A DNA stretch of 64,000 nucleotides from Rhodospirillales bacterium. Lineage in GTDB: Bacteria > Pseudomonadota > Alphaproteobacteria > Acetobacterales > Acetobacteraceae. A program made the position numbers and the translations under genes. The DNA is taken from contig JANXSM010000035.1 of the NCBI GenBank assembly GCA_025352665.1, positions 62,001 through 126,000 of the forward strand, written 5' to 3'. Below the pieces are notes generated by a model, which worked only from the letters and a program-made list of their open reading frames with translations, was not told where the DNA came from and did not search any database. Numbering within the stretch: position 1 is the stretch's first letter; each line of letters begins with the position of its first letter. Of this stretch, positions 32,488 through 40,993 are shown one piece after another.

Positions 32488-32736
32488 ATGGTGGGCGTTC
32501 CAACCCTGGACAAACTTGTGAGAGAGCGGCTCCGGGAATGGCCACAACGGCCGCCCGGCCTGAAGCCTGGCGCTGAGGCAGATGAGACGGGGCGTGACGG
32601 ATGGCTGCGCGGTCGGCCCGATGAACGTACGGTTTCGAACTTTCCGTATCTGAAGCTGCCAGGCGCGGATCGTTTCCGGACCTTGCCTGACGGATTGTGG
32701 ATGAATTTTGGAGGTACAGTCGACGAGCCGTACGTC

Positions 32737-32744
32737 GATATCTT
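32737..32744. repeat. Target-site duplication, copy 1 (GATATCTT)
   Basis: The 8-bp host sequence GATATCTT immediately before the left end of element A. Identical copies lie at 37448-37455 and 40556-40563. Eight bases is the duplication length known for IS1595-family insertions. Confidence 0.9.
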
Positions 32745-32829
32745 CGGTATTATGTAGCAAGCACACCTAAATCGTTGACGCCAACGATAAGCATTTATGT
32801 TATACTAATTGCCTCACTCGGAGGCATGC

Positions 32830-33261
32830 ATGACGAACGCCCTCATTTTGCAACTGGCTGCACGTCGCGCCGAACTGGCCGGCGAGATGCACACCATACA
32901 GACCCGACTCCACGAGATCCACGCGGACCTCGCCAGCTTGGACGCGGTGATCAAGCAGTTCGACCCAGAATATGAGTTGGCAGCGATCCGACCGAAATAC
33001 CGCCGCGCGGAGACCCCTGCTGAGGTTGCTTCCATCAGCCGGTCGGTTCTGGACACGCTGCGGCGTGCTGGGGAGGCGATGACCGTGAAACAGGTTGCCG
33101 AGGCTATCGTGGCTGAGCGGGGACTCGACGCCACGGACAGGGCATTAGCGCGGTCCATGCGCAAGCGGGTGGATATGGCGCTGCGGTATCAGCGGACGAA
33201 TGGGATGGTTGAGGAAGTGGCGGGGGATGGGGTCTTGGTGGCATGGCAACTCTCAAGCTAA
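32830..33261 (+). CDS. Coiled-coil plus winged-helix protein, element A end gene
   Basis: A 143-residue protein. Residues ~8-50 are a charged coiled coil (ELAGEMHTIQTRLHEIHADL), and residues ~75-143 look like a winged helix (SVLDTLRRAGEAMTVKQVAEAI). A GGAGG lies five bases before ATG 32830. A protein of exactly the same length and layout sits at the corresponding end of element B (39996-40427), pointing inward in both. TTGACG (32775) and TATACT (32801) may be a promoter, although their 20-base spacing is long. Likely a DNA-binding protein belonging to the element backbone; function unknown. Confidence 0.7.
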   Translation: MTNALILQLAARRAELAGEMHTIQTRLHEIHADLASLDAVIKQFDPEYELAAIRPKYRRAETPAEVASISRSVLDTLRRAGEAMTVKQVAEAIVAERGLDATDRALARSMRKRVDMALRYQRTNGMVEEVAGDGVLVAWQLSS

Positions 33262-33300
33262 TGTCATTCCGATGATAATGTCGCTCTAAGGGTTGATGAA

Positions 33301-34341
33301 ATGCCGTTTCAAGAACGTCGCTTACTAATTCAGAAACTGGAAGATTTGCGTGGTTCCAAAGTTCTTTGTTATGTGACGTCACTCCGGCCCAATGTAAATG
33401 CTCAGATCTCAGATGACGCCGTGCGTGAGTTCATTGATCATTTACAAAAATTACCTGAGCACCCAACGGCAAAAATCGATCTTTTGATTATTAGCAACGG
33501 TGGCGACGGCGTTGTTCCTTGGCGTTTAATTCCGATTTTACGGGAGTATAGCGAAAAGATTGGGGTTCTGATCCCGTTCAAGGCGTATTCTGCCGCTACG
33601 ATAATGGCGTTAGGTGCGGATGAAATCGTAATGCACAAGTTTGCTGCGATGGGACCTATTGATCCAACCGTAACCAATGAATTCAACCCCATGGAGCAGG
33701 GGTCGGGGAGAAAGTTAGGAATTAGCGTAGAGGACGTAAAAGCTTACATTTCGTTCATTCGTGAGACTGTTGGTATCAACCACGAAGAAGAGGTGATCAA
33801 AGCCGTAGAGATCCTGGCTAATAAAGTTCATCCATTAGCGCTTGGAAATGTTGAAAGATTTATATCTCAGTCCAGAATGATCGCCCGGAAACTTTTGGAA
33901 CTACATACGGAAAAATCCGATGACCATACTATTAGTCCAATAATCGAAGCGTTAGCTTCTAAACTGTATTTTCATGGGCATCCTATCAATCGAAGAGAGG
34001 CAGTTCAACTCGGACTTAAAGTATTGCAGAACGTTCCAGAAGAAATTGAAACTCTACTTTGGGATATTTATGTTGACTTCGAAAAAGAAATGGATTTTAG
34101 GGAGCCATATGACCCAATTGGTAAACTGCAAGCTTTGCCACAAATGGTTGCCCAAATAGGACTTTACACTGAATTGGCAAAGCTCGATGCTGATTTAACA
34201 TATGCCGTTGTTGAAAGTCTAAGACTTTCAAGTCGTTTTAACGCGCAAACTCGGTATGCTCTACTGTCTGACCCGCAACTCCAACAGTCTATGTCTATTA
34301 CCGTGTTGAGTCAGAAGTGGGATCAGACGCTATCCCCCTAG
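33301..34341 (+). CDS. SDH-type ClpP-fold serine protease-like protein
   Basis: A 346-residue protein of the ClpP/crotonase fold, closest by motif to the SDH (serine dehydrogenase proteinase, SppA-like) family. LLIISNGGDGVVPWRLIPIL supplies the oxyanion glycine region, and AYSAATIMALGADEIVMHKF the nucleophile serine near residue 98. AAMGPIDPTV follows, as in that family. About 150 extra C-terminal residues are helical. No signal peptide is visible. The gene is far poorer in GC than the host genes and than the transposase, pointing to a foreign origin. In a mobile element such a gene may serve maintenance or defence; that is inference. Confidence 0.7.
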   Translation: MPFQERRLLIQKLEDLRGSKVLCYVTSLRPNVNAQISDDAVREFIDHLQKLPEHPTAKIDLLIISNGGDGVVPWRLIPILREYSEKIGVLIPFKAYSAATIMALGADEIVMHKFAAMGPIDPTVTNEFNPMEQGSGRKLGISVEDVKAYISFIRETVGINHEEEVIKAVEILANKVHPLALGNVERFISQSRMIARKLLELHTEKSDDHTISPIIEALASKLYFHGHPINRREAVQLGLKVLQNVPEEIETLLWDIYVDFEKEMDFREPYDPIGKLQALPQMVAQIGLYTELAKLDADLTYAVVESLRLSSRFNAQTRYALLSDPQLQQSMSITVLSQKWDQTLSP

Positions 34342-34658
34342 ATCCGGACTCAAAAATTGCAGATCCCTTGAAACTAGCGGGAGCTTCTGTCCTTTTTGGT
34401 TCAATAAACCTAGGGGACCTCATGGCAGTGGGGGATTGCGATGGGGAAGCTACTCGGGAGCCTAGGGGGAATAGGTCAACATGGCACCCGGTCCGTATGC
34501 GGAGGCGCGTGATTGTAAGGGTCGGTGCAATTTTGACTGCATTACCGAACGCATCCATCATAGCATCACCCTTGTACGTTGCATAAGTACCACATCTCTT
34601 CAATATGATTAGAACAGAAATTTATAAACGACAAATTAAACTGTCTGTTCCCACGGCT
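34342..34658. other. Gap in element A with two opposing weak ORFs
   Basis: On the plus strand a GTG-started frame (34317-34586) overlaps the SDH-like gene; on the minus strand a frame from about 34561 down to 34298 has an AAGGGTGA-like site before ATGATG. Each is the shadow of the other, neither shows a recognisable domain, and I cannot choose. The end next to the transposase is AT-rich. Confidence 0.3.
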
Positions 34659-35615
34659 TCAACCGCGCTGCCAATACCCAGCCCACACCCGCGAAACCGG
34701 ATGACCCAACGCCGCGCCCGTAGCGGCCTCGTGCTGCCCACCGTTCGAAACGAGGCGCGCATCTTCGCGCCAAGCCATCTCAGCGGCGTAAAAGCCAAGA
34801 TACTTGCCGCTGATGTGGTGGTGCTGGCCAACCTCAGCGCGGCGAAGCCGGGAGAAGAAAGACTCGGCCATGTTCGTGCACGCACCGTCCTTCGAGAACG
34901 CAACCGAGTGGTTGATGCGCTTCATCTCGTAGCGAGCGTGCAGCGCATCCCACCCGGCCGCTTCGTCCGCATGCACCACTGAGCCGGGTGCTACCACGGA
35001 GCGGATGAACGCAACGCCCATCGCCTCTTTGCCCACAACCGCCGTCAGGGTGCGGCCGTCACGCTCGCGCGCCACGATGACGGACTGGCGCTTGCCAGTC
35101 TGAGCGGCGGTCAGGCGACGGTCTTTGCGCTCCGCCTTGTTGTTCTCCTGTTTGGCATGGCCGCCGAAGTAAGCCCCGTCGACCTCAACCGTGCCGGACA
35201 GCGACACGCCCGCCTGACCTGCGCCGATTGCTTCGCGGATCTTGTGGGCCATCACGAACGCCGTCTTATACTGAACGTCCAGATCGCGGCCGAGCTGCAG
35301 GGCCGAGATGCCCTTGACCGCGTTCACGAAGATCGCGATGGCGGCGAGGTAATCGCGGATAGCCAGTTTGCGGCTGGCGAAGATGGTCCCGCTGGTAACG
35401 CTGAACTGGTGCGAGCAAGCCTTGCACTTCCAGATGCGCCGAGCGGCGTAGGTGTAAACAGCCGTGCACTCGCAGCGCGGGCAGAAGGCAGCGCCGCCGT
35501 TGTCGGCGAACCGGATCGCGGTGAAGTGGTCGTGAGCGGCATCGTCCGTCATCTGGAAGATGGCCTTGAGGCTCAGCGTGCGGGCCTTGGCGGAGAGGAG
35601 GAAGTGCTGAGCCAT
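34659..35615 (-). CDS. IS1595-family transposase, element A
   Basis: A 318-residue transposase. An N-terminal zinc ribbon (FCPRCEC near residue 45 and WKCKACSHQF near 65) is followed by the DDE-type ISXO2-like domain: VEVDGAYFGG (first aspartate), HADEAAGWDAL (second aspartate) and CTNMAESFFSRLRR (asparagine/glutamate). Start set at ATG 35615, giving MAQHFLLSAKARTLSL, which matches the start of the element B enzyme. A TTG 15 bases upstream overlaps the operator-like palindrome. TTGACC and TATGAA with 17-base spacing lie upstream. Clearly diverged from the element B transposase, so A and B are not recent copies of one another. Confidence 0.93.
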   Translation of the reverse strand: MAQHFLLSAKARTLSLKAIFQMTDDAAHDHFTAIRFADNGGAAFCPRCECTAVYTYAARRIWKCKACSHQFSVTSGTIFASRKLAIRDYLAAIAIFVNAVKGISALQLGRDLDVQYKTAFVMAHKIREAIGAGQAGVSLSGTVEVDGAYFGGHAKQENNKAERKDRRLTAAQTGKRQSVIVARERDGRTLTAVVGKEAMGVAFIRSVVAPGSVVHADEAAGWDALHARYEMKRINHSVAFSKDGACTNMAESFFSRLRRAEVGQHHHISGKYLGFYAAEMAWREDARLVSNGGQHEAATGAALGHPVSRVWAGYWQRG

Positions 35616-35627
35616 CGGGGTAAACCT

Positions 35628-35693
35628 CAACGATATTCGTTGAGATCATTCATATCCACGGATATATGCTAGGTCAATGGAATTCGTTGACCT
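35628..35693. promoter_or_regulatory. Divergent promoter and operator region between transposase A and XRE regulator
   Basis: Minus strand: TTGACC (35672-35677) and TATGAA (35649-35654), 17 bases apart, drive the transposase. Plus strand: TTGAGA (35640-35645) and TATATG (35663-35668), also 17 apart, drive the XRE gene. Three inverted repeats overlay them: CAACGA TAT TCGTTG (35628-35642), CATATCC/GGATATA (35651-35666) and AGGTCAA/TTGACCT (35671-35693). The XRE protein is the natural candidate to bind here. Confidence 0.6.
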
Positions 35694-35722
35694 CAGACAG
35701 CATTTCTGCGATCTTCCCTCCC

Positions 35723-35965
35723 ATGCTTACACCAGAACAAAGCCGGGCAGCGCGTGGTTGGCTAGATTGGAGCCAGGAAGATTTGGCAAAGCGCGCCAAC
35801 GTCTCCATGAGCACAGTTCGCGATTTTGAAAAAAACCGGCGAACGCCAATCAACAATAACTTGATGGCGCTCGCCGCTGCGCTGAAACACGCAGGAGTTA
35901 CCCCGACCTTCGATGAACATGGGAAGCCCCACGGGATCGTCAGTCGGGGTGCTGGTGAAGTTTAA
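35723..35965 (+). CDS. XRE-type helix-turn-helix regulator
   Basis: An 80-residue DNA-binding protein. SRAARGWLDWSQEDLAKRANVSMSTVRDFEKNRR is given here only as positions 6-39 of the protein: the helix-turn-helix lies at about residues 16-38. It is divergent from the transposase across a region packed with inverted repeats, so it probably represses transposase and its own expression. Start ATG 35723 is chosen because the HTH follows directly; the open frame upstream to 35666 covers promoter DNA. Confidence 0.8.
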   Translation: MLTPEQSRAARGWLDWSQEDLAKRANVSMSTVRDFEKNRRTPINNNLMALAAALKHAGVTPTFDEHGKPHGIVSRGAGEV

Positions 35966-36333
35966 AACCTAGGCATTGGTATGGGGTAAGCGTTCGGGAA
36001 GCGACGCCCATGAACGATGTGGCAGACGGTGCCCAGGTTCAGTTCAGCGGAGATAGATGCCTGGGTCTGCGTTTTACGTTCCACGTAGACAAGATGCAGA
36101 ACCCAGCAGGCTTTTTGAAAATTACACGGATTGCGACTCATGGTCGGGCGGCTCCAAGTTTGAAACAAAAACTTGAAATCCAAGCGCAAGCATGCGACTT
36201 TCCAGAGCCGTTGGACCGGCATGCCTACGCTGGACTTCTCCGAAGGAAGTTGGCTTTGGTTTCGGCGCCGTCAGATGCTCGAACATCTGACGGCGCTACC
36301 TACTTCGTAGGAACCGAACAGCAAAAAATATGA
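35966..36333. other. Gap in element A with competing ORFs
   Basis: A plus frame (36010-36333) and a minus frame (35962-36222) overlap in this stretch. Neither has a recognisable domain, and the plus frame runs through a strong hairpin at 36265-36296. I leave both uncalled. Confidence 0.3.
36265..36296 (-). terminator. Perfect 13-bp hairpin after the minus-strand cargo unit
   Basis: GCGCCGTCAGATG and CATCTGACGGCGC with a 6-base loop. It lies 38 bases after the stop of the 189-residue gene and is preceded on that strand by a small CCTAC GAA GTAGG hairpin. There is no T-run directly behind it, so termination is inferred from strength and position. Confidence 0.55.
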
Positions 36334-36903
36334 TCATTCGAACGGATCAATCGACGGGTCGTCGTGGTCCGATATCTCTGGCATCCGCTCGAAGCCTTCT
36401 GCGGTGGACCCGAAATGTCGGTTTTGCTGATGATGGTCGGCCTCTGGATTCCCAGGCGGCAATTTCACCAACACCCACTCACCGTGTCCGACTTGGACTG
36501 CCACACCCTTGTCGCGAAGTGTCCGCAGCGCCATCCGAACCGAAGATGGATTGAGATCAATTCCCTCGGACTGCGCCAACGTTACAATTTTCAGCGGCTT
36601 CACCGGGCCAGCGTATTTCCGCAAAACTCGCTCGACATGCTCAGCGATTTTGCCAGGACGCGCACGAGACGTTGGGTAATTAAGCGTCCGCACCGCGTTG
36701 GCAGGAACCGTGTCGTTTGGCGCATCCACTGCCTGAGATGGCTCCGTGATTGACCCAAATCTATCGAATACGTTTTTCATATCCGCTAGAAGCGCGCCGG
36801 TCTTCTGGCGCTCAAATCTGCAACCGGCGTCAAATGCCTCCGCGATCGCGTCAAGAAGAATACCGGAGTACTTTTCCTGCAGAAACTCCAGCGCATCTTC
36901 CAT
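36334..36903 (-). CDS. Winged-helix-like cargo protein of element A
   Basis: A 189-residue protein. Residues ~1-50 are helical (EFLQEKYSGILLDAIAEAF), followed by a polar linker. Residues ~85-150 look like a winged helix (AEHVERVLRKYAG, SSVRMALRTLRDKGVAVQVG), ending with a histidine/aspartate-rich tail. The architecture (helices, linker, wHTH) is reminiscent of the end genes of both elements, but the helical part comes in a different form. It starts three bases after the stop of the 68-residue ORF, so the two are co-translated. Family not recognised. Confidence 0.6.
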   Translation of the reverse strand: MEDALEFLQEKYSGILLDAIAEAFDAGCRFERQKTGALLADMKNVFDRFGSITEPSQAVDAPNDTVPANAVRTLNYPTSRARPGKIAEHVERVLRKYAGPVKPLKIVTLAQSEGIDLNPSSVRMALRTLRDKGVAVQVGHGEWVLVKLPPGNPEADHHQQNRHFGSTAEGFERMPEISDHDDPSIDPFE

Positions 36904-36906
36904 CGC

Positions 36907-37113
36907 CTAGACTCCTATCTTGCGAATCAGTTTTCGCACAGAGTCGCGCGTCGCGTCAATCGCGAACGCGTTTTCCGGTAAAAAGTTTTCAGGTTTGTCA
37001 ATCTGTTTGTTCCCACAGTTGCAAACGACTACGAAACGGTTTTCGCGGTTGATTTTGACTGTTTCCCGTGGGAAAATGCCTGCGGTGATCGCCGCCAATC
37101 TTTCCAGATGCAC
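36907..37113 (-). CDS. Small hypothetical protein, 68 residues
   Basis: A small basic protein starting at GTG 37113. It has an isolated CNCG motif (VVVCNCGNKQIDKP) that could hold a metal with another site, and a helical end (DSVRKLIRKIGV). It lies directly before the winged-helix gene (TAG, three bases, ATG), which argues for real translation. No clear ribosome site is visible for the GTG. Function unknown. Confidence 0.45.
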   Translation of the reverse strand: MHLERLAAITAGIFPRETVKINRENRFVVVCNCGNKQIDKPENFLPENAFAIDATRDSVRKLIRKIGV

Positions 37114-37194
37114 CCCAAGCCCTAAGGGCGGGGGCGCAGGGGTGCCCCGGCTCCAGGGATATCAGCCCCGGAGCCATGGAAGGAGGTGAACGCG

Positions 37195-37308
37195 ATGAGA
37201 GTAACTTGCTCTTGGCCTAAGGCGGTATCAGTGATCGACTACACCCGCTTTAGGCTTGGACGGTGGGAATACGTGAGTTCCCATTGTCGGTCGTGGCCCC
37301 GGCGTTAG
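37195..37308 (+). CDS. 37-residue ORF with perfect Shine-Dalgarno, near right end of element A
   Basis: MRVTCSWPKAVSVIDYTRFR is the first part of a 37-residue frame ending at TAG 37306-37308. AAGGAGGTGA ends seven bases before the ATG, the strongest ribosome site in the window. The product is basic and rich in Trp, Arg and Tyr. Inside the frame CCTAAGGCGG and CCGCTTTAGG form an inverted repeat, and GGGAA/TTCCC another, so the RNA may also be structured. It could be a tiny cargo gene, a leader peptide or part of a structured RNA. Confidence 0.45.
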   Translation: MRVTCSWPKAVSVIDYTRFRLGRWEYVSSHCRSWPRR

Positions 37309-37447
37309 CGCGCTGAAGCCATAACCAAGGCGGCGGTCACCACCCTGTCTCTTATAGAATCATGTCTATGCGCTGTAGTCCAGTGGATTGACGCCAGATG
37401 AGCTTAACGTCAACGAAAAGCGTTGGTGTGGTTGCTACATAATGCCG

Positions 37448-37455
37448 GATATCTT
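37448..37455. repeat. Target-site duplication, copy 2, shared by elements A and B
   Basis: GATATCTT lies exactly between the right end of A and the left end of B, so both elements abut a single copy. This is expected if the second element inserted into the duplicated target left by the first. Confidence 0.9.
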
Positions 37456-37553
37456 CGGTATTATGTAGCAACCGCCACCACGGCGCGGCGCGGAGGTTGA
37501 CGATTTTCCGGTATGGTTTCAGCTTCGCACTTGAACCTGTGCAAGCATGAAAA

Positions 37554-37874
37554 ATGTTCCCGGCTCCCACCGAACCAAACCCTGGCCTATTGACACAAGC
37601 TCAGCGATTGCTGGTCGACAAGTGGATAAAGGACCATTGGAACAACGCATTCCGATGTCCTTTATGCGGTTCAGATGCTTGGACCGTTTCCGAACATATC
37701 CTAGAGATGCGGCCCTTTACCGGCGGAAATCTTACAATTGGAGGAACGGTTTACCCATTTGTGGTAATCACATCAACGCTTTGCGGATATTCGATGCTAA
37801 TCAATGCGGTTGCATCAGGCATCATGCCTGCCGCACAGCCTACAGAAGTTACGCCTGGGGGCGCGAATGTCTGA
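37554..37874 (+). CDS. Zinc-ribbon-like small protein, element B cargo
   Basis: A 106-residue protein. FRCPLCGSDAWTVSEHILEMRP (22 residues, residues ~33-54) holds a CPLCG knuckle; later TLCGYSMLINAVASG offers one more cysteine, so a complete CxxC pair is not visible there. Proteins of this pattern with a glycine-rich middle (FTGGNLTIGGTVYPFVVI) occur as small hypothetical proteins in alphaproteobacteria. Its stop overlaps the next gene by eight bases. Function unknown. Confidence 0.6.
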   Translation: MFPAPTEPNPGLLTQAQRLLVDKWIKDHWNNAFRCPLCGSDAWTVSEHILEMRPFTGGNLTIGGTVYPFVVITSTLCGYSMLINAVASGIMPAAQPTEVTPGGANV

Positions 37875-38280
37875 GCCGCTTACTATCGGTGCGGAGCAAG
37901 CAAGGCCCCCGGCGTGGGGAGCGTCCAACGTCGCGATTGTATTTAGCCGTCCGGAAAACGTTGTTTTCCATTGGGTGCAGACTCATGAGTTGGAGAGTCT
38001 CATGAAGATAGAAAAGCCGTTTTCCCTCGCGATTGCTGCGGCTGCGACGGGGTGTGCGTTAGGACTTCTCCCAACATTACAAGCTGGTATCAGTGCGCTA
38101 CACGACCTCAGTAAAGTCAGTGTGTCCGATGTCTATTGGGACATGGGTTATGCAGCGATTTTCGCTTTGTCCGTTGGCGTGGCCATTGTGACATGGATCA
38201 ATGCAACATCGGGCGAGAGTGAGGCTAAGGCACTCCTAGAAGAGATTAAAAAACGTCCCATGCTGCCGATGGCGCGCTAA
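37867..38280 (+). CDS. Two-TM membrane protein, element B cargo
   Basis: A 137-residue protein with two hydrophobic segments (about 52-75 and 93-112) and a charged C-terminal tail (SEAKALLEEIKKRP). ATG 37867 overlaps the stop of the zinc-ribbon gene by eight bases, so the two act as a translational pair. No family recognised. The frame upstream of 37867 is a shadow of the partner. Confidence 0.6.
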   Translation: MSEPLTIGAEQARPPAWGASNVAIVFSRPENVVFHWVQTHELESLMKIEKPFSLAIAAAATGCALGLLPTLQAGISALHDLSKVSVSDVYWDMGYAAIFALSVGVAIVTWINATSGESEAKALLEEIKKRPMLPMAR

Positions 38281-38286
38281 AACAAA

Positions 38287-38529
38287 TCAGAGATCCTCCA
38301 GCCTAATCCCTTCCATCTCCAAGGCAGCCAGAGCAGCTAGCAAGAACGTTGCGGCAAACGTCCCGCGCTTAAGCTTCGCCTTGATCGAAGCTTCAGTTTC
38401 TCCATTTAGCCCATGACCCTTGAGCCTTTCTGCAAGCTGGGCATAGGTGACGTTTGCCCGCTTTAGTTCGGCCTTGATGAAGCGCGATGTGCGCTCTGCC
38501 AATTCCTGCTCCGTCTCCGCGAGTCCCAT
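38287..38529 (-). CDS. DUF6471 family protein
   Basis: An 80-residue protein. RFIKAELKRANVTYAQLAER followed by NGETEASIKAKLKRGTFAAT and EMEGIRLEDL matches DUF6471, a small helix-turn-helix-like family of unknown role. It is divergent from the transposase, in the place where element A carries its XRE regulator, so I infer a regulatory role for the element. It ends six bases from the membrane-protein stop (convergent). Confidence 0.8.
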   Translation of the reverse strand: MGLAETEQELAERTSRFIKAELKRANVTYAQLAERLKGHGLNGETEASIKAKLKRGTFAATFLLAALAALEMEGIRLEDL

Positions 38530-38573
38530 GGGCTTGATCCAATTTTAAAGGGTCATATTCGACACTTTAGTTC

Positions 38574-38602
38574 TTGACGTGATCTCTTGCAAGGTTCATA
38601 TA
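38574..38602 (+). promoter_or_regulatory. Transposase B promoter
   Basis: TTGACG (38574-38579) and CATATA (38597-38602) with 17-base spacing. The predicted transcript start falls after ATG 38602, which supports the internal ATG 38629 as the translation start. Confidence 0.6.
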
Positions 38603-38628
38603 TGGCTCTAAGGAGTCACATACGCACC

Positions 38629-39609
38629 ATGTCTCAACACTTCCTCTTGTCAGCAAAGGCCCGCACGCTCTCGCTAGCGTCGTGCCTGCGTATGACGGAT
38701 CTGGAAGCCGAGACGCTGTTCCGTTCGATTCGCTGGCCCGCGACGAACGGCAAGCCGATCTGCCCGCACTGTGAATGCCCAACCGTGTATGAGGCTCGTC
38801 GCCCGTCCGGCGCTCTGCGCTTCCGCTGCAAGGCATGCCGCAAGGATTTCAGCATCACCAGCGGCGCGCTGTTCGCGTTTCACAAGATGCCGCTGCAAAC
38901 CTATCTCGCGGCCATCGTGATCTTCTGCAACGAGGTGAAGGGCAAATCCGCCCTGGCGCTCTCCCGCGATTTGGACGTGCAATACAAGACTGCCTACGTG
39001 CTGGCCCACAAGCTGCGCGAAGCAATGGCCGTGGAGAGCAAGGGCCTGCACCTGGGCGGCGAAGGCGAGACGGTAGAGGTCGATGGCGGCTATTTCGGCG
39101 GCTACGTGAAGCCGTCCAACCACAAGGAAAACCGTCGCGATCGTCGCTTGGCCAAAAACCAGAACGGCAAGCGCCAGGTTGTGGTTGTGATGCGCGAGCG
39201 GGGCGGCAGCACCTTACCTGCGGTGTTCTCCAGCGAAGGCGCCTCGGTTGGCTTCATCACGGCGCGGGTGGCCAAGGAAACGCGCCTGATCGCCGACGAG
39301 GCTGGTTCATGGAACGCGCTGCATGCCCGGTTCGCCATGGACCGGATCGACCACAGCACGCTCTATAGCGACCGGGCAGGCATCTACACGAACGGGGCCG
39401 AAGGGTTCTTCTCCCGCATGCGCCGCGCCGAAATTGGTCATCACCACCACATCGCAGGTGCGTATCTGGTCCGCTACGCACAAGAGGCGGCGTTTCGCGA
39501 GGACCATCGCCGCGAGAGCAACGGCATTCAGGTTCAGCGGGTTATGGGGCTGGCGCTGGCTTCGCGGCCTAGCGTGGATTTTTGCGGTTATTGGCAGCGG
39601 GCAAATTAA
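38629..39609 (+). CDS. IS1595-family transposase, element B
   Basis: A 326-residue transposase. Zinc ribbon: CPHCECPTV near residue 44 and FRCKACRKDF near residue 65. Catalytic ISXO2-like domain: VEVDGGYFGGYV, IADEAGSWNAL and TNGAEGFFSRMRR. The C-terminal FCGYWQRAN resembles the GYWQRG end of transposase A. ATG 38629 gives MSQHFLLSAKARTLSL, as in A, and a TAAGGAG site lies upstream. The two transposases share the same plan with many differences, so they are distant relatives acting on nearly the same ends. Confidence 0.94.
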   Translation: MSQHFLLSAKARTLSLASCLRMTDLEAETLFRSIRWPATNGKPICPHCECPTVYEARRPSGALRFRCKACRKDFSITSGALFAFHKMPLQTYLAAIVIFCNEVKGKSALALSRDLDVQYKTAYVLAHKLREAMAVESKGLHLGGEGETVEVDGGYFGGYVKPSNHKENRRDRRLAKNQNGKRQVVVVMRERGGSTLPAVFSSEGASVGFITARVAKETRLIADEAGSWNALHARFAMDRIDHSTLYSDRAGIYTNGAEGFFSRMRRAEIGHHHHIAGAYLVRYAQEAAFREDHRRESNGIQVQRVMGLALASRPSVDFCGYWQRAN

Positions 39610-39615
39610 ACAAAA

Positions 39616-39641
39616 ACGGGCCATGCAAAAGCATGACCCGT
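39616..39641. terminator. Hairpin after transposase B
   Basis: ACGGG.CATGC, an AAAA loop, then GCATG.CCCGT, seven bases after the transposase stop. There is no T-run behind it. It may separate the transposase from the opposing tRNA-like transcript. Confidence 0.5.
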
Positions 39642-39799
39642 CATGAGGCTTTCGCCCTCGCCACCGGCCATTTCTGGCCGAACCTGCTGCCATCGCACGA
39701 TTCGGAAATCGAGTGACCTCGATGACAACAGGGTAAATTTGGTAGCAGTTTTAGAAATACACAATACGCATTTCTCAACGCAGATGAGCGTGCGTGAAC

Positions 39800-39828
39800 G
39801 GGAGCCCTCTTGCGAGTGACCGGCTCCC
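39800..39828 (-). terminator. Hairpin downstream of the tRNA-like gene
   Basis: GGGAGCC and GGCTCCC, 15-base loop, about 37 bases beyond the 3 end of the tRNA-like gene on its strand. Possible end of the wHTH/tRNA transcript. 39642-39799 shows no gene. Confidence 0.4.
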
Positions 39829-39864
39829 ATTCACTTCACAATCCGCTCGCGCCACAGCGGAAGG

Positions 39865-39951
39865 TGGCGAGGGCGACGGGAATCGAACCCGCTCGGCCGG
39901 TCAAAGCCCACGGATTAACAGTCCGCTCCATCACCATTCTGTCTCGCCCCC
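39865..39951 (-). tRNA. tRNA-Asn(GTT)-like gene with long variable loop and weak D arm
   Basis: 87 bases with encoded CCA. The acceptor 39945-39951 (GGGGGCG) pairs with 39869-39875 (CGCCCTC, one G-T), and the discriminator is G as in tRNA-Asn. The anticodon arm 39910-39926 has a 5-bp stem and loop CTGTTAA, with anticodon GTT at 39917-39919. The T arm 39876-39892 has a 5-bp stem and loop TTCGATT. The variable region (39893-39909) is 17 bases, far longer than the usual 4-5 of tRNA-Asn, and the D arm forms only two to three pairs. It lies 44 bases after the winged-helix gene on the same strand. Confidence 0.7.
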
Positions 39952-39995
39952 ACATCGAATATGTTAGCTACATCAATCCTTTTAACAACCCGATT

Positions 39996-40427
39996 CTAGT
40001 TAAAAGACGCACTCGCCAAAGCCCGCTTGGCCGTCCGCCCGTTCCCCACGTTCACCGACACGCCGCGCTTCTGCCAAGCCGAGAACACGTTCTGCAACCG
40101 CGTCCGCGTCACCTTCAACGTGCGCGAATCCGGCAGCGTGATGCCCTTCCGCGCCAACGCCCGCACAGCTACCTCCCGCGTCGCCAGCGGCTCTCCGGCG
40201 CGGCGTAGGATGTCCATGGCCAACCGTGGAAGCTCGCCGCGTGCGAAGTGAGGGTTGGGCGCATAGCGCCTGGGTGGCAGCGTCAACTCCGGGGCGATTT
40301 CGTGTATCTGCGCCTCTAGCTCGGCGAGCTTGGCGTAGTAGCCCGCTAACTGCGGCTCTAGCAGTTGAATGCGCATCGTCACGCGAGCGCGTGCGCGGCG
40401 TAGCTTGGTCAGGTCAGAATCACCCAT
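39996..40427 (-). CDS. Coiled-coil plus winged-helix protein, element B end gene
   Basis: A 143-residue protein from ATG 40427 (a GTG at 40433 is an alternative). Residues ~15-50 are a coiled coil (LLEPQLAGYYAKLAELEAQI), then an arginine/proline linker, and a winged-helix part from about 70 (LAMDILRRAGEPLATREVAV). It has the same length, order and orientation relative to the element end as the element A gene at 32830, with an alike DxLRRAGE core. The tail is basic. It is probably part of the transposition or regulation machinery; function unknown. Confidence 0.7.
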   Translation of the reverse strand: MGDSDLTKLRRARARVTMRIQLLEPQLAGYYAKLAELEAQIHEIAPELTLPPRRYAPNPHFARGELPRLAMDILRRAGEPLATREVAVRALARKGITLPDSRTLKVTRTRLQNVFSAWQKRGVSVNVGNGRTAKRALASASFN

Positions 40428-40555
40428 ATTCACGGATACTCACGATAGATCACGGAACGTATGAATCCGCCTGAATCGGGCGGTTTCACCGTGATTATGG
40501 CCATAAATTGGGGGTTTTGCTTGTACGGGCTGGTGGCGGTTGCTACATAATACCG

Positions 40556-40563
40556 GATATCTT
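40556..40563. repeat. Target-site duplication, copy 3
   Basis: GATATCTT directly after the right end of element B, continuing in frame into the 3 part of the interrupted host gene. Confidence 0.9.
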
Positions 40564-40950
40564 CGCCATCGAGGCCTGTGGATCGTTGACCAACCTGCTC
40601 GACAAACGGTCGCGTTTTGCGCCCAGCACACATTCGCTGTTGGCGGTGTGCCCGATGCAATGGTTGTTGCGCCCGGCAACCCAGAACGACCCGACGCCGC
40701 GCTGGCAGGTGACCCGGGTGTTGAAAACCGAGCCGGTGCGGCCGTTGGTGCTGCCGGTGAGGGACATCAAGGTGATGTATGCGTTGAAGATGCGGCACTA
40801 TCGCGGCTTCACCGAGACGCAGATCCCGCATCCGCATGAGTATTTCGTGCCGATGGACGCAATCACCGCAAAGGACGGCCATGAAAGCCCGGCGATCCGC
40901 GCCTTGGTCTCACGTGCGTCCGTGACTGCCAACTTCCTTGCCACCACCTG

Positions 40951-40993
40951 AGCGAGAGCGACGCGGGGATGTCTCCCTCGCGTTGCTTTCGCT
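40951..40993. terminator. Very strong hairpin at the stop of the interrupted gene
   Basis: An 18-bp stem with three G-T pairs and a short loop begins on the last base of the TGA stop. AGCGAGAGCGACGCG on the left pairs with CGCGTTGCTTTCGCT on the right. There is no T-run. Confidence 0.6.

What the first reader, a model, noticed from the sequence alone, without database searches (positions are those of the whole stretch)
32737..40563. Two different IS1595-type elements in tandem sharing one target site, with GATATCTT three times
Seen directly: nearly the same terminal inverted repeats at 32745, 37447, 37456 and 40555, and the 8-bp GATATCTT left of A, between A and B, and right of B. Joining the outer flanks restores an uninterrupted 214-codon frame. 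The transposases are clearly diverged and B is in the opposite orientation to A, so this is not a tandem duplication. It implies successive insertion into the same 8-bp target, either by target preference or by attraction to an existing element end.
Basis: seen in the sequence. Interest (0 to 1): 0.9.

Follow-up and report, generated by a model that had tools for sequence, protein, structure and literature searches.

The report
Two site-seeking transposons stacked at one hotspot
Two different jumping genes of the IS1595 kind sit back to back in one gene because each seeks the same short site, a site hit repeatedly in related bacteria; a small gene that both carry is probably what aims them, which would be a new way for such transposons to choose a landing place.

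Summary
Confirmed. A (32745-37447) and B (37456-40555) are complete IS1595-family elements with near-identical ends, flanked and separated by GATATCTT (three copies). The joined 214-codon gene is real: 118 of 200 sampled genomes of the host's family have it. The open question, target preference or attraction to an existing end, resolves in favour of target preference. In five other genomes of the family, elements sit at the same 8 bp of this gene; an A-type element alone in one (L205) and a B-type element alone in another (L206). The half of the site right of the insertion (GCCATCGAGGCCTG) is conserved, so each 8-bp duplication next to it restores the target and elements can stack; B is then the later arrival. 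Relatives of these elements use other precise sites: two in comM (eight and three genomes; the first at the Walker-B motif), a glycosyltransferase gene and tRNA-Arg 3' ends. A second tandem of diverged elements lies in the comM Walker-B site. Across elements, the target follows a small accessory protein (coiled coil plus winged helix) carried at one end (nearest neighbour shares the target 11/11), not the transposase (0/11) or DUF6471 (1/11). I propose it is the target selector; that is inferred, untested and has exceptions.

The parts
32488..32744 (+). 5' part of the interrupted 214-codon host gene, up to and including the first GATATCTT
   Evidence: homologues 72-74% identical in congeners, present in 118/200 family genomes; no Pfam or NCBIfam match
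32737..32744 (.). target duplication copy 1, GATATCTT
32745..37447 (.). element A, IS1595-family, 4703 bp
   Evidence: terminal inverted repeats and 8-bp duplications; A-type relative alone at the same site in L205
32745..32767 (+). left terminal inverted repeat of A (CGGTATTATGTAGCAAGCACACC)
32830..33261 (+). ACC-A, accessory protein (coiled coil + winged helix), proposed target selector
   Evidence: no Pfam/NCBIfam hit above cut-off; model pLDDT 93, winged-helix matches; nearest relatives mostly at the same target
33301..34341 (+). cargo of A: ClpP-like SDH serine protease family protein
   Evidence: PF01972 E 6.9e-18
34659..35630 (-). transposase of A
   Evidence: PF12762 E 6.7e-41 and PF12760, NF033547
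35666..35965 (+). XRE-like HTH gene in the place where relatives carry DUF6471
   Evidence: PF01381, architecture
36334..36903 (-). cargo ORF of A, unknown
   Evidence: no Pfam hit
37425..37447 (-). right terminal inverted repeat of A (CGGCATTATGTAGCAACCACACC)
37448..37455 (.). target duplication copy 2, GATATCTT, shared by A and B
37456..40555 (.). element B, IS1595-family, 3100 bp
   Evidence: B-type relative alone at the same site in L206
37456..37479 (+). left terminal inverted repeat of B (CGGTATTATGTAGCAACCGCCACC)
38287..38529 (-). DUF6471 gene of B, third core gene of this group
   Evidence: PF20075 E 2.7e-20; conserved position
38629..39609 (+). transposase of B
   Evidence: PF12762 E 1.4e-34 and PF12760, NF033547
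39868..39951 (-). tRNA-like gene carried by B (GUU in the anticodon position, read by eye)
   Evidence: Rfam RF00005 44.3 bits; not found by ARAGORN
39996..40433 (-). ACC-B, accessory protein, proposed target selector of B
   Evidence: 27.5% identical to ACC-A, E 2e-11; 74% to ACC of the element at the same site in L206, about 33-36% at most to any other
40532..40555 (-). right terminal inverted repeat of B
40556..40563 (.). target duplication copy 3, GATATCTT
40564..40951 (+). 3' part of the interrupted host gene; begins with the conserved half-site CGCCATCGAGGCCTG

Best explanation
A and B are IS1595-family transposons that insert into sequence-specific hotspots. Both use the same 8 bp (codons D-I-F of a conserved gene of the host's family), next to a conserved half-site to the right (GCCATCGAGGCCTGCGGC). 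A inserted first and duplicated the 8 bp; its right-hand copy together with the untouched right half-site rebuilt the complete target; B, with its own selector for the same site, then inserted there, leaving three copies of GATATCTT and B next to the half-site. Shown: both elements, their ends and duplications, the intact gene in relatives, and recurrent insertion at the same position. Inferred: that the site is chosen by the accessory protein ACC at one end of each element, that recognition is one-sided (right half), and hence the order A then B. ACC-A and ACC-B are only about 26% identical, so two different selector types would have come to the same site.
For: Homologues of the host gene are in 118 of 200 family genomes; elements sit at the identical position in G097 (L205, GATATCTT, 3639 bp), G189 (L206, GATATCTT, 3739 bp), G250 (L207/L208), G831 (L209/L214, GACATCCT) and G857 (L212). 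Right flank mean identity 0.88 against 0.73 left. Other precise hotspots of the same group: comM site 1 GVLFLDELPE|F in 8 genomes, always the same 8 bp; comM site 2 in 3; a glycosyltransferase site in 2 plus one close by; 3' of tRNA-Arg in 2; one further site hit in both orientations in two genomes. A second tandem of diverged elements, with GAAAACTC at the junction and behind the second element, lies in comM site 1 (L146), the second element next to the Walker-B half. Same target goes with ACC similarity after removing transposase similarity (partial r 0.54, p 0.0002), not the reverse (p 0.76); nearest neighbour shares the target 11/11 for ACC, 0/11 for transposase, 1/11 for DUF6471. Check on elements not used in that test: ACC-B is 74% identical to ACC of the L206 element and far less to others; ACC-A is 54-59% to those of L205, L208, L209 against about 41% at most for elements at other known targets in that set.
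Against: ACC identity does not fully predict the target: G257 carries an ACC 57-62% identical to ACC-A at another site, and a damaged copy on own contig C94 (ACC 76%, stop codon) has the flank GGAATGTG outside this gene. In the window class the transposases of A and its site-mates are also close (77%), so only the wider set separates ACC from transposase. Recognition side and order are read from conservation, which protein coding alone could give. Many insertions lie at sites seen once. No experiment exists.
Confidence: 0.8

Rival explanations
1. End attraction: the transposase of the second element was drawn to the terminal repeat of the first, whose first 16 bases are nearly identical, and cut the adjacent 8 bp, whatever the host sequence.
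For: Shared end sequence. Other junctions of two ends with 8 bp between: L146 and L263, where the second end is a bare remnant.
Against: A-type and B-type elements occur alone at this same site in other genomes, so no resident end is needed. A genome with 68+64 such ends (G413) has no such junction with up to 3 mismatches; none in viral contigs, and of 385 genomes of the class only the own has one. The other good tandem is in a known hotspot.
Confidence: 0.08
2. Survivorship: insertions are random but only those in dispensable conserved genes persist.
For: comM and the 214-codon gene are interrupted without loss of the lineage.
Against: Insertions fall on the identical 8 bp within each gene, in both orientations, while selection acts on the whole gene.
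Confidence: 0.04
3. The sites are hotspots but the transposase itself, not ACC, chooses them; ACC is a regulator or structural partner that travels with the end.
For: ACC is always next to one terminus, so it could be co-inherited with the end sequence; exceptions to ACC-target agreement exist.
Against: Transposases 80-86% identical go to different sites with ACC 31-38% identical, while elements sharing a site have similar ACC even when transposases are no closer.
Confidence: 0.25
4. Assembly or recombination artefact.
For: Draft genome of 177 contigs.
Against: Elements differ throughout, junctions are base-perfect, the pair is far inside a 144.8 kb contig, and each element type occurs at the same site in independent assemblies.
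Confidence: 0.01

Closest known systems
IS1595 family of insertion sequences and transposons (ISXO2-like transposases; Siguier et al. 2009, cited in PMC3281130)
   Same: DDE domain PF12762, zinc ribbon PF12760, terminal inverted repeats, 8-bp duplications, passenger genes
   Different: Recurrent base-exact hotspots in conserved genes and a conserved second gene (ACC) that covaries with the target; no paper found in the held library reports either
Tn6022-like Tn7 transposons with the target selector TnsF (PMC10293859)
   Different: TnsA/B/C/TniQ machinery and a tyrosine-recombinase-derived selector; here a single IS1595 transposase and a 145-aa coiled-coil/winged-helix protein
Tsy elements (PMC10293859)
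   Same: Insert into comM by recognising the Walker-B region
   Different: Tyrosine recombinases, no inverted repeats or 8-bp duplications
Tn7 at attTn7 (general knowledge)
   Same: Selector reads a conserved gene sequence on one side of the insertion point, so the site survives insertion
   Different: Tn7 inserts outside the gene and has target immunity; here the gene is split and a second, different element was accepted

Membership tests
IS1595 family | DDE transposase with ISXO2-like domain | tested here: met
   PF12762 E 6.7e-41 (A), 1.4e-34 (B); NF033547 above cut-off
IS1595 family | N-terminal zinc ribbon | tested here: met
   PF12760 above cut-off in both
IS1595 family | 8-bp target duplication | tested here: met
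   GATATCTT for A and B; perfect 8-mers in more than 20 complete relatives
IS1595 family | Conserved terminal inverted repeats | tested here: met
IS1595 family | Catalytic activity and residues | not tested
   Intact frames only; no residue-level check or assay
Tn7-like transposons | TnsB/TnsC/TniQ machinery | tested here: not met
   None among the ten A/B proteins scanned with Pfam
Tn6022/Tsy target selector TnsF | Tyrosine-recombinase fold of the selector | tested here: not met
   ACC model is one long helix plus a winged helix; matches are mostly winged-helix DNA-binding proteins
RNA-guided transposons | Guide-like match between element and target flank | tested here: not met
   No match above the level of swapped flanks in A, B or nearly all others

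The most novel reading that the evidence does not exclude
ACC is a new, exchangeable class of target selector that lets a simple one-transposase element of the IS1595 family home onto conserved sites in genes (comM Walker-B, a second comM site, an IEACG-coding site, glycosyltransferase genes, tRNA ends), with one-sided recognition that rebuilds the target and permits stacking of different elements.
Probability: 0.55. Interest if true: 0.88.

Novelty: new variant of a known kind. Interest (0 to 1): 0.75.

Why it matters
Simple transposons are usually thought to choose targets loosely. Here a compact system (one transposase plus one protein of about 145 residues) appears to achieve gene-level, base-exact targeting, with natural examples of the same transposase type sent to different sites and different transposases sent to the same site. 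That makes target choice directly testable by exchanging one small gene. It also shows the comM Walker-B motif reached independently by a third kind of mobile element, and explains how different transposons come to stack at one site.

Tried and rejected
Guide sequence inside the element matching the target flank: nothing above background. Long shared motif around all targets: only a weak palindromic GANNNNTC-like preference inside the 8 bp. More tandem junctions by pattern in viral contigs, in 46 genomes with such ends (one found: L146) and in 385 genomes of the class (only the own). Own comM as an insertion site: intact. Pfam and NCBIfam gave no name for ACC or for the interrupted gene; PDB sequence search gave only weak coiled-coil matches. 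Literature searches for IS1595 with target specificity, magnesium chelatase or DUF6471 found no prior report.

Full report
Observation. A (32745-37447, 4703 bp) and B (37456-40555, 3100 bp) have near-identical ends (CGG(T/C)ATTATGTAGCAA) and are flanked and separated by GATATCTT, which occurs only at these three places in the window. Removing the pair and two of the three 8-mers gives an open frame of 214 codons. Both transposases carry the IS1595 DDE and zinc-ribbon domains; they are 54% identical and on opposite strands, so this is not a duplication.

The interrupted gene. Five of seven congeners hold an uninterrupted homologue, 72-74% identical over the full length. In a sample of 200 genomes of the host's family, 118 have a match. 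No Pfam or NCBIfam model matches it.

The site is a hotspot. The same search showed the gene split near residue 85 in other genomes. Fetched and inspected: G097 (L205) has a 3639-bp element between two GATATCTT; G189 (L206) a 3739-bp element between two GATATCTT; G250 (L207/L208), G831 (L209/L214) and G857 (L212) have GACATCCT or its complement at the same codons, with an element end. The L205 element is A-like (transposase 77%, ACC 56%), the L206 element B-like (transposase 80%, ACC 72-74%). The DNA right of the 8 bp (GCCATCGAGGCCTGCGGC) is strongly conserved, the left side less.

Relatives elsewhere. An end-pattern scan of the public genome collection gave 59 stretches, and further searches more. 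Complete elements show perfect 8-bp duplications. Many targets recur exactly: eight genomes at comM site 1, coding GVLFLDELPE|F, all at the same 8 bp; three at comM site 2; two at one glycosyltransferase site and one about 30 bp away; two directly behind tRNA-Arg genes; one site in two genomes in opposite orientations. Element orientation relative to the site varies. Over all ends the 8-mer has only a weak palindromic preference, so the 8 bp alone cannot explain the precision. The comM Walker-B motif is also the experimentally shown target of Tn6022 and Tsy through TnsF (PMC10293859).

A second tandem. In Phenylobacterium SCN 69-14 (L146) the right end of one element, GAAAACTC, and a 6429-bp second element with different but mutually identical 23-bp ends and GAAAACTC behind it sit in comM site 1. 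The second lies next to the Walker-B half. The first element's left end is off the contig, and the second stretch holds two ACC genes, so it may itself be composite. In L043/L147 a truncated element and an intact one share CTCACTTC/CTCATTTC/CTCATTTC at the 3' end of mnmE. In L263 a bare end adjoins a complete element across GCCTATTG.

The accessory protein. Most elements have the order end-ACC-transposase-DUF6471-end, with cargo between; ACC lies near one end and converges on the transposase. A has an XRE-like gene where others have DUF6471. Minimal two-gene versions of 1.6-1.7 kb are on Skermanella and Rhodovastum plasmids. A model of ACC-A has mean pLDDT 93 with a 43-residue helix and a winged helix; PDB fold matches are mostly winged-helix DNA-binding proteins, none with E below 0.001. 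Target class follows ACC, not the transposase: partial Mantel r 0.54, p 0.0002, against no effect of the transposase; nearest neighbours share the target 11/11 for ACC, 0/11 for transposase, 1/11 for DUF6471. Window elements were left out of that test, and then behaved as predicted. Exceptions are the damaged own copy on C94 and the G257 element.

Mechanism. Shown: precise recurrent targets, the same site used by A-type and B-type elements alone, the tandem. Inferred: ACC binds the conserved half-site and directs the transposase to the adjacent 8 bp; the duplication next to the half-site rebuilds the target; a second element with a selector for the same site can insert, pushing the first away. 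This predicts A before B here, and in L146 the first element before the second. End attraction is not needed and is disfavoured.

Standing. By its transposases, ends and duplications the pair belongs to the IS1595 family. The hotspot behaviour and the covarying accessory protein were not found described in the held literature; subscription papers, including the founding IS1595 paper, could not be read.

Noticed in passing
window 39868-39951; L040 1371-1442; L054 2889-2977; L060 2842-2913; L153 6361-6433: Five of these elements carry a tRNA or tRNA-like gene as cargo, each different, some odd (Thr AGT, an 8-nt anticodon loop, a long variable arm in B). Possibly a defence against tRNA-cutting systems.
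   Followed up: partly
L048, L060, L079, L182, L081, L153, L184/L185, L146: Eight genomes have an IS1595-type element at the same 8 bp of the comM Walker-B coding sequence, the region also targeted by Tn6022 and Tsy.
   Followed up: yes
L054, L063, L068: A second exact site in comM, upstream of the first, is used by elements with another ACC type.
   Followed up: yes
L186, L187/L188, L075: Glycosyltransferase genes in sphingomonads are hit on either side of a conserved stretch coding GPTTKADCLN.
   Followed up: partly
L147 19-4422: A truncated element and an intact one share the 8-mer at the 3' end of mnmE; the truncated one ends at the shared 8-mer without a terminal repeat.
   Followed up: partly
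L263 2378-6750: A complete element abuts a lone element end across GCCTATTG with no recognisable second element behind it.
   Followed up: partly
L156, L157, L235, L237: Insertions about 9-10 bp from a repeat-like ATACCAACCGGC motif, which suggests one-sided recognition at fixed spacing.
   Followed up: no
L036 4026-4115; L087 3394-3483: 90-bp mini-elements with the same ends and 8-bp duplications in methane-oxidising bacteria.
   Followed up: no
genome G413 (Candidatus Thiodictyon intracellulare): More than 130 such ends in 3 Mb, some pairs only about 100-200 bp apart, an expansion in a symbiont; no shared-target junction found.
   Followed up: partly
L149 7066 (own contig C94): Own genome holds a further element end with a damaged ACC gene 76% identical to ACC-A, with another flank; no second end found within 12 kb.
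   Followed up: partly
window 33301-34341: A carries a ClpP-like SDH serine protease gene as cargo.
   Followed up: no
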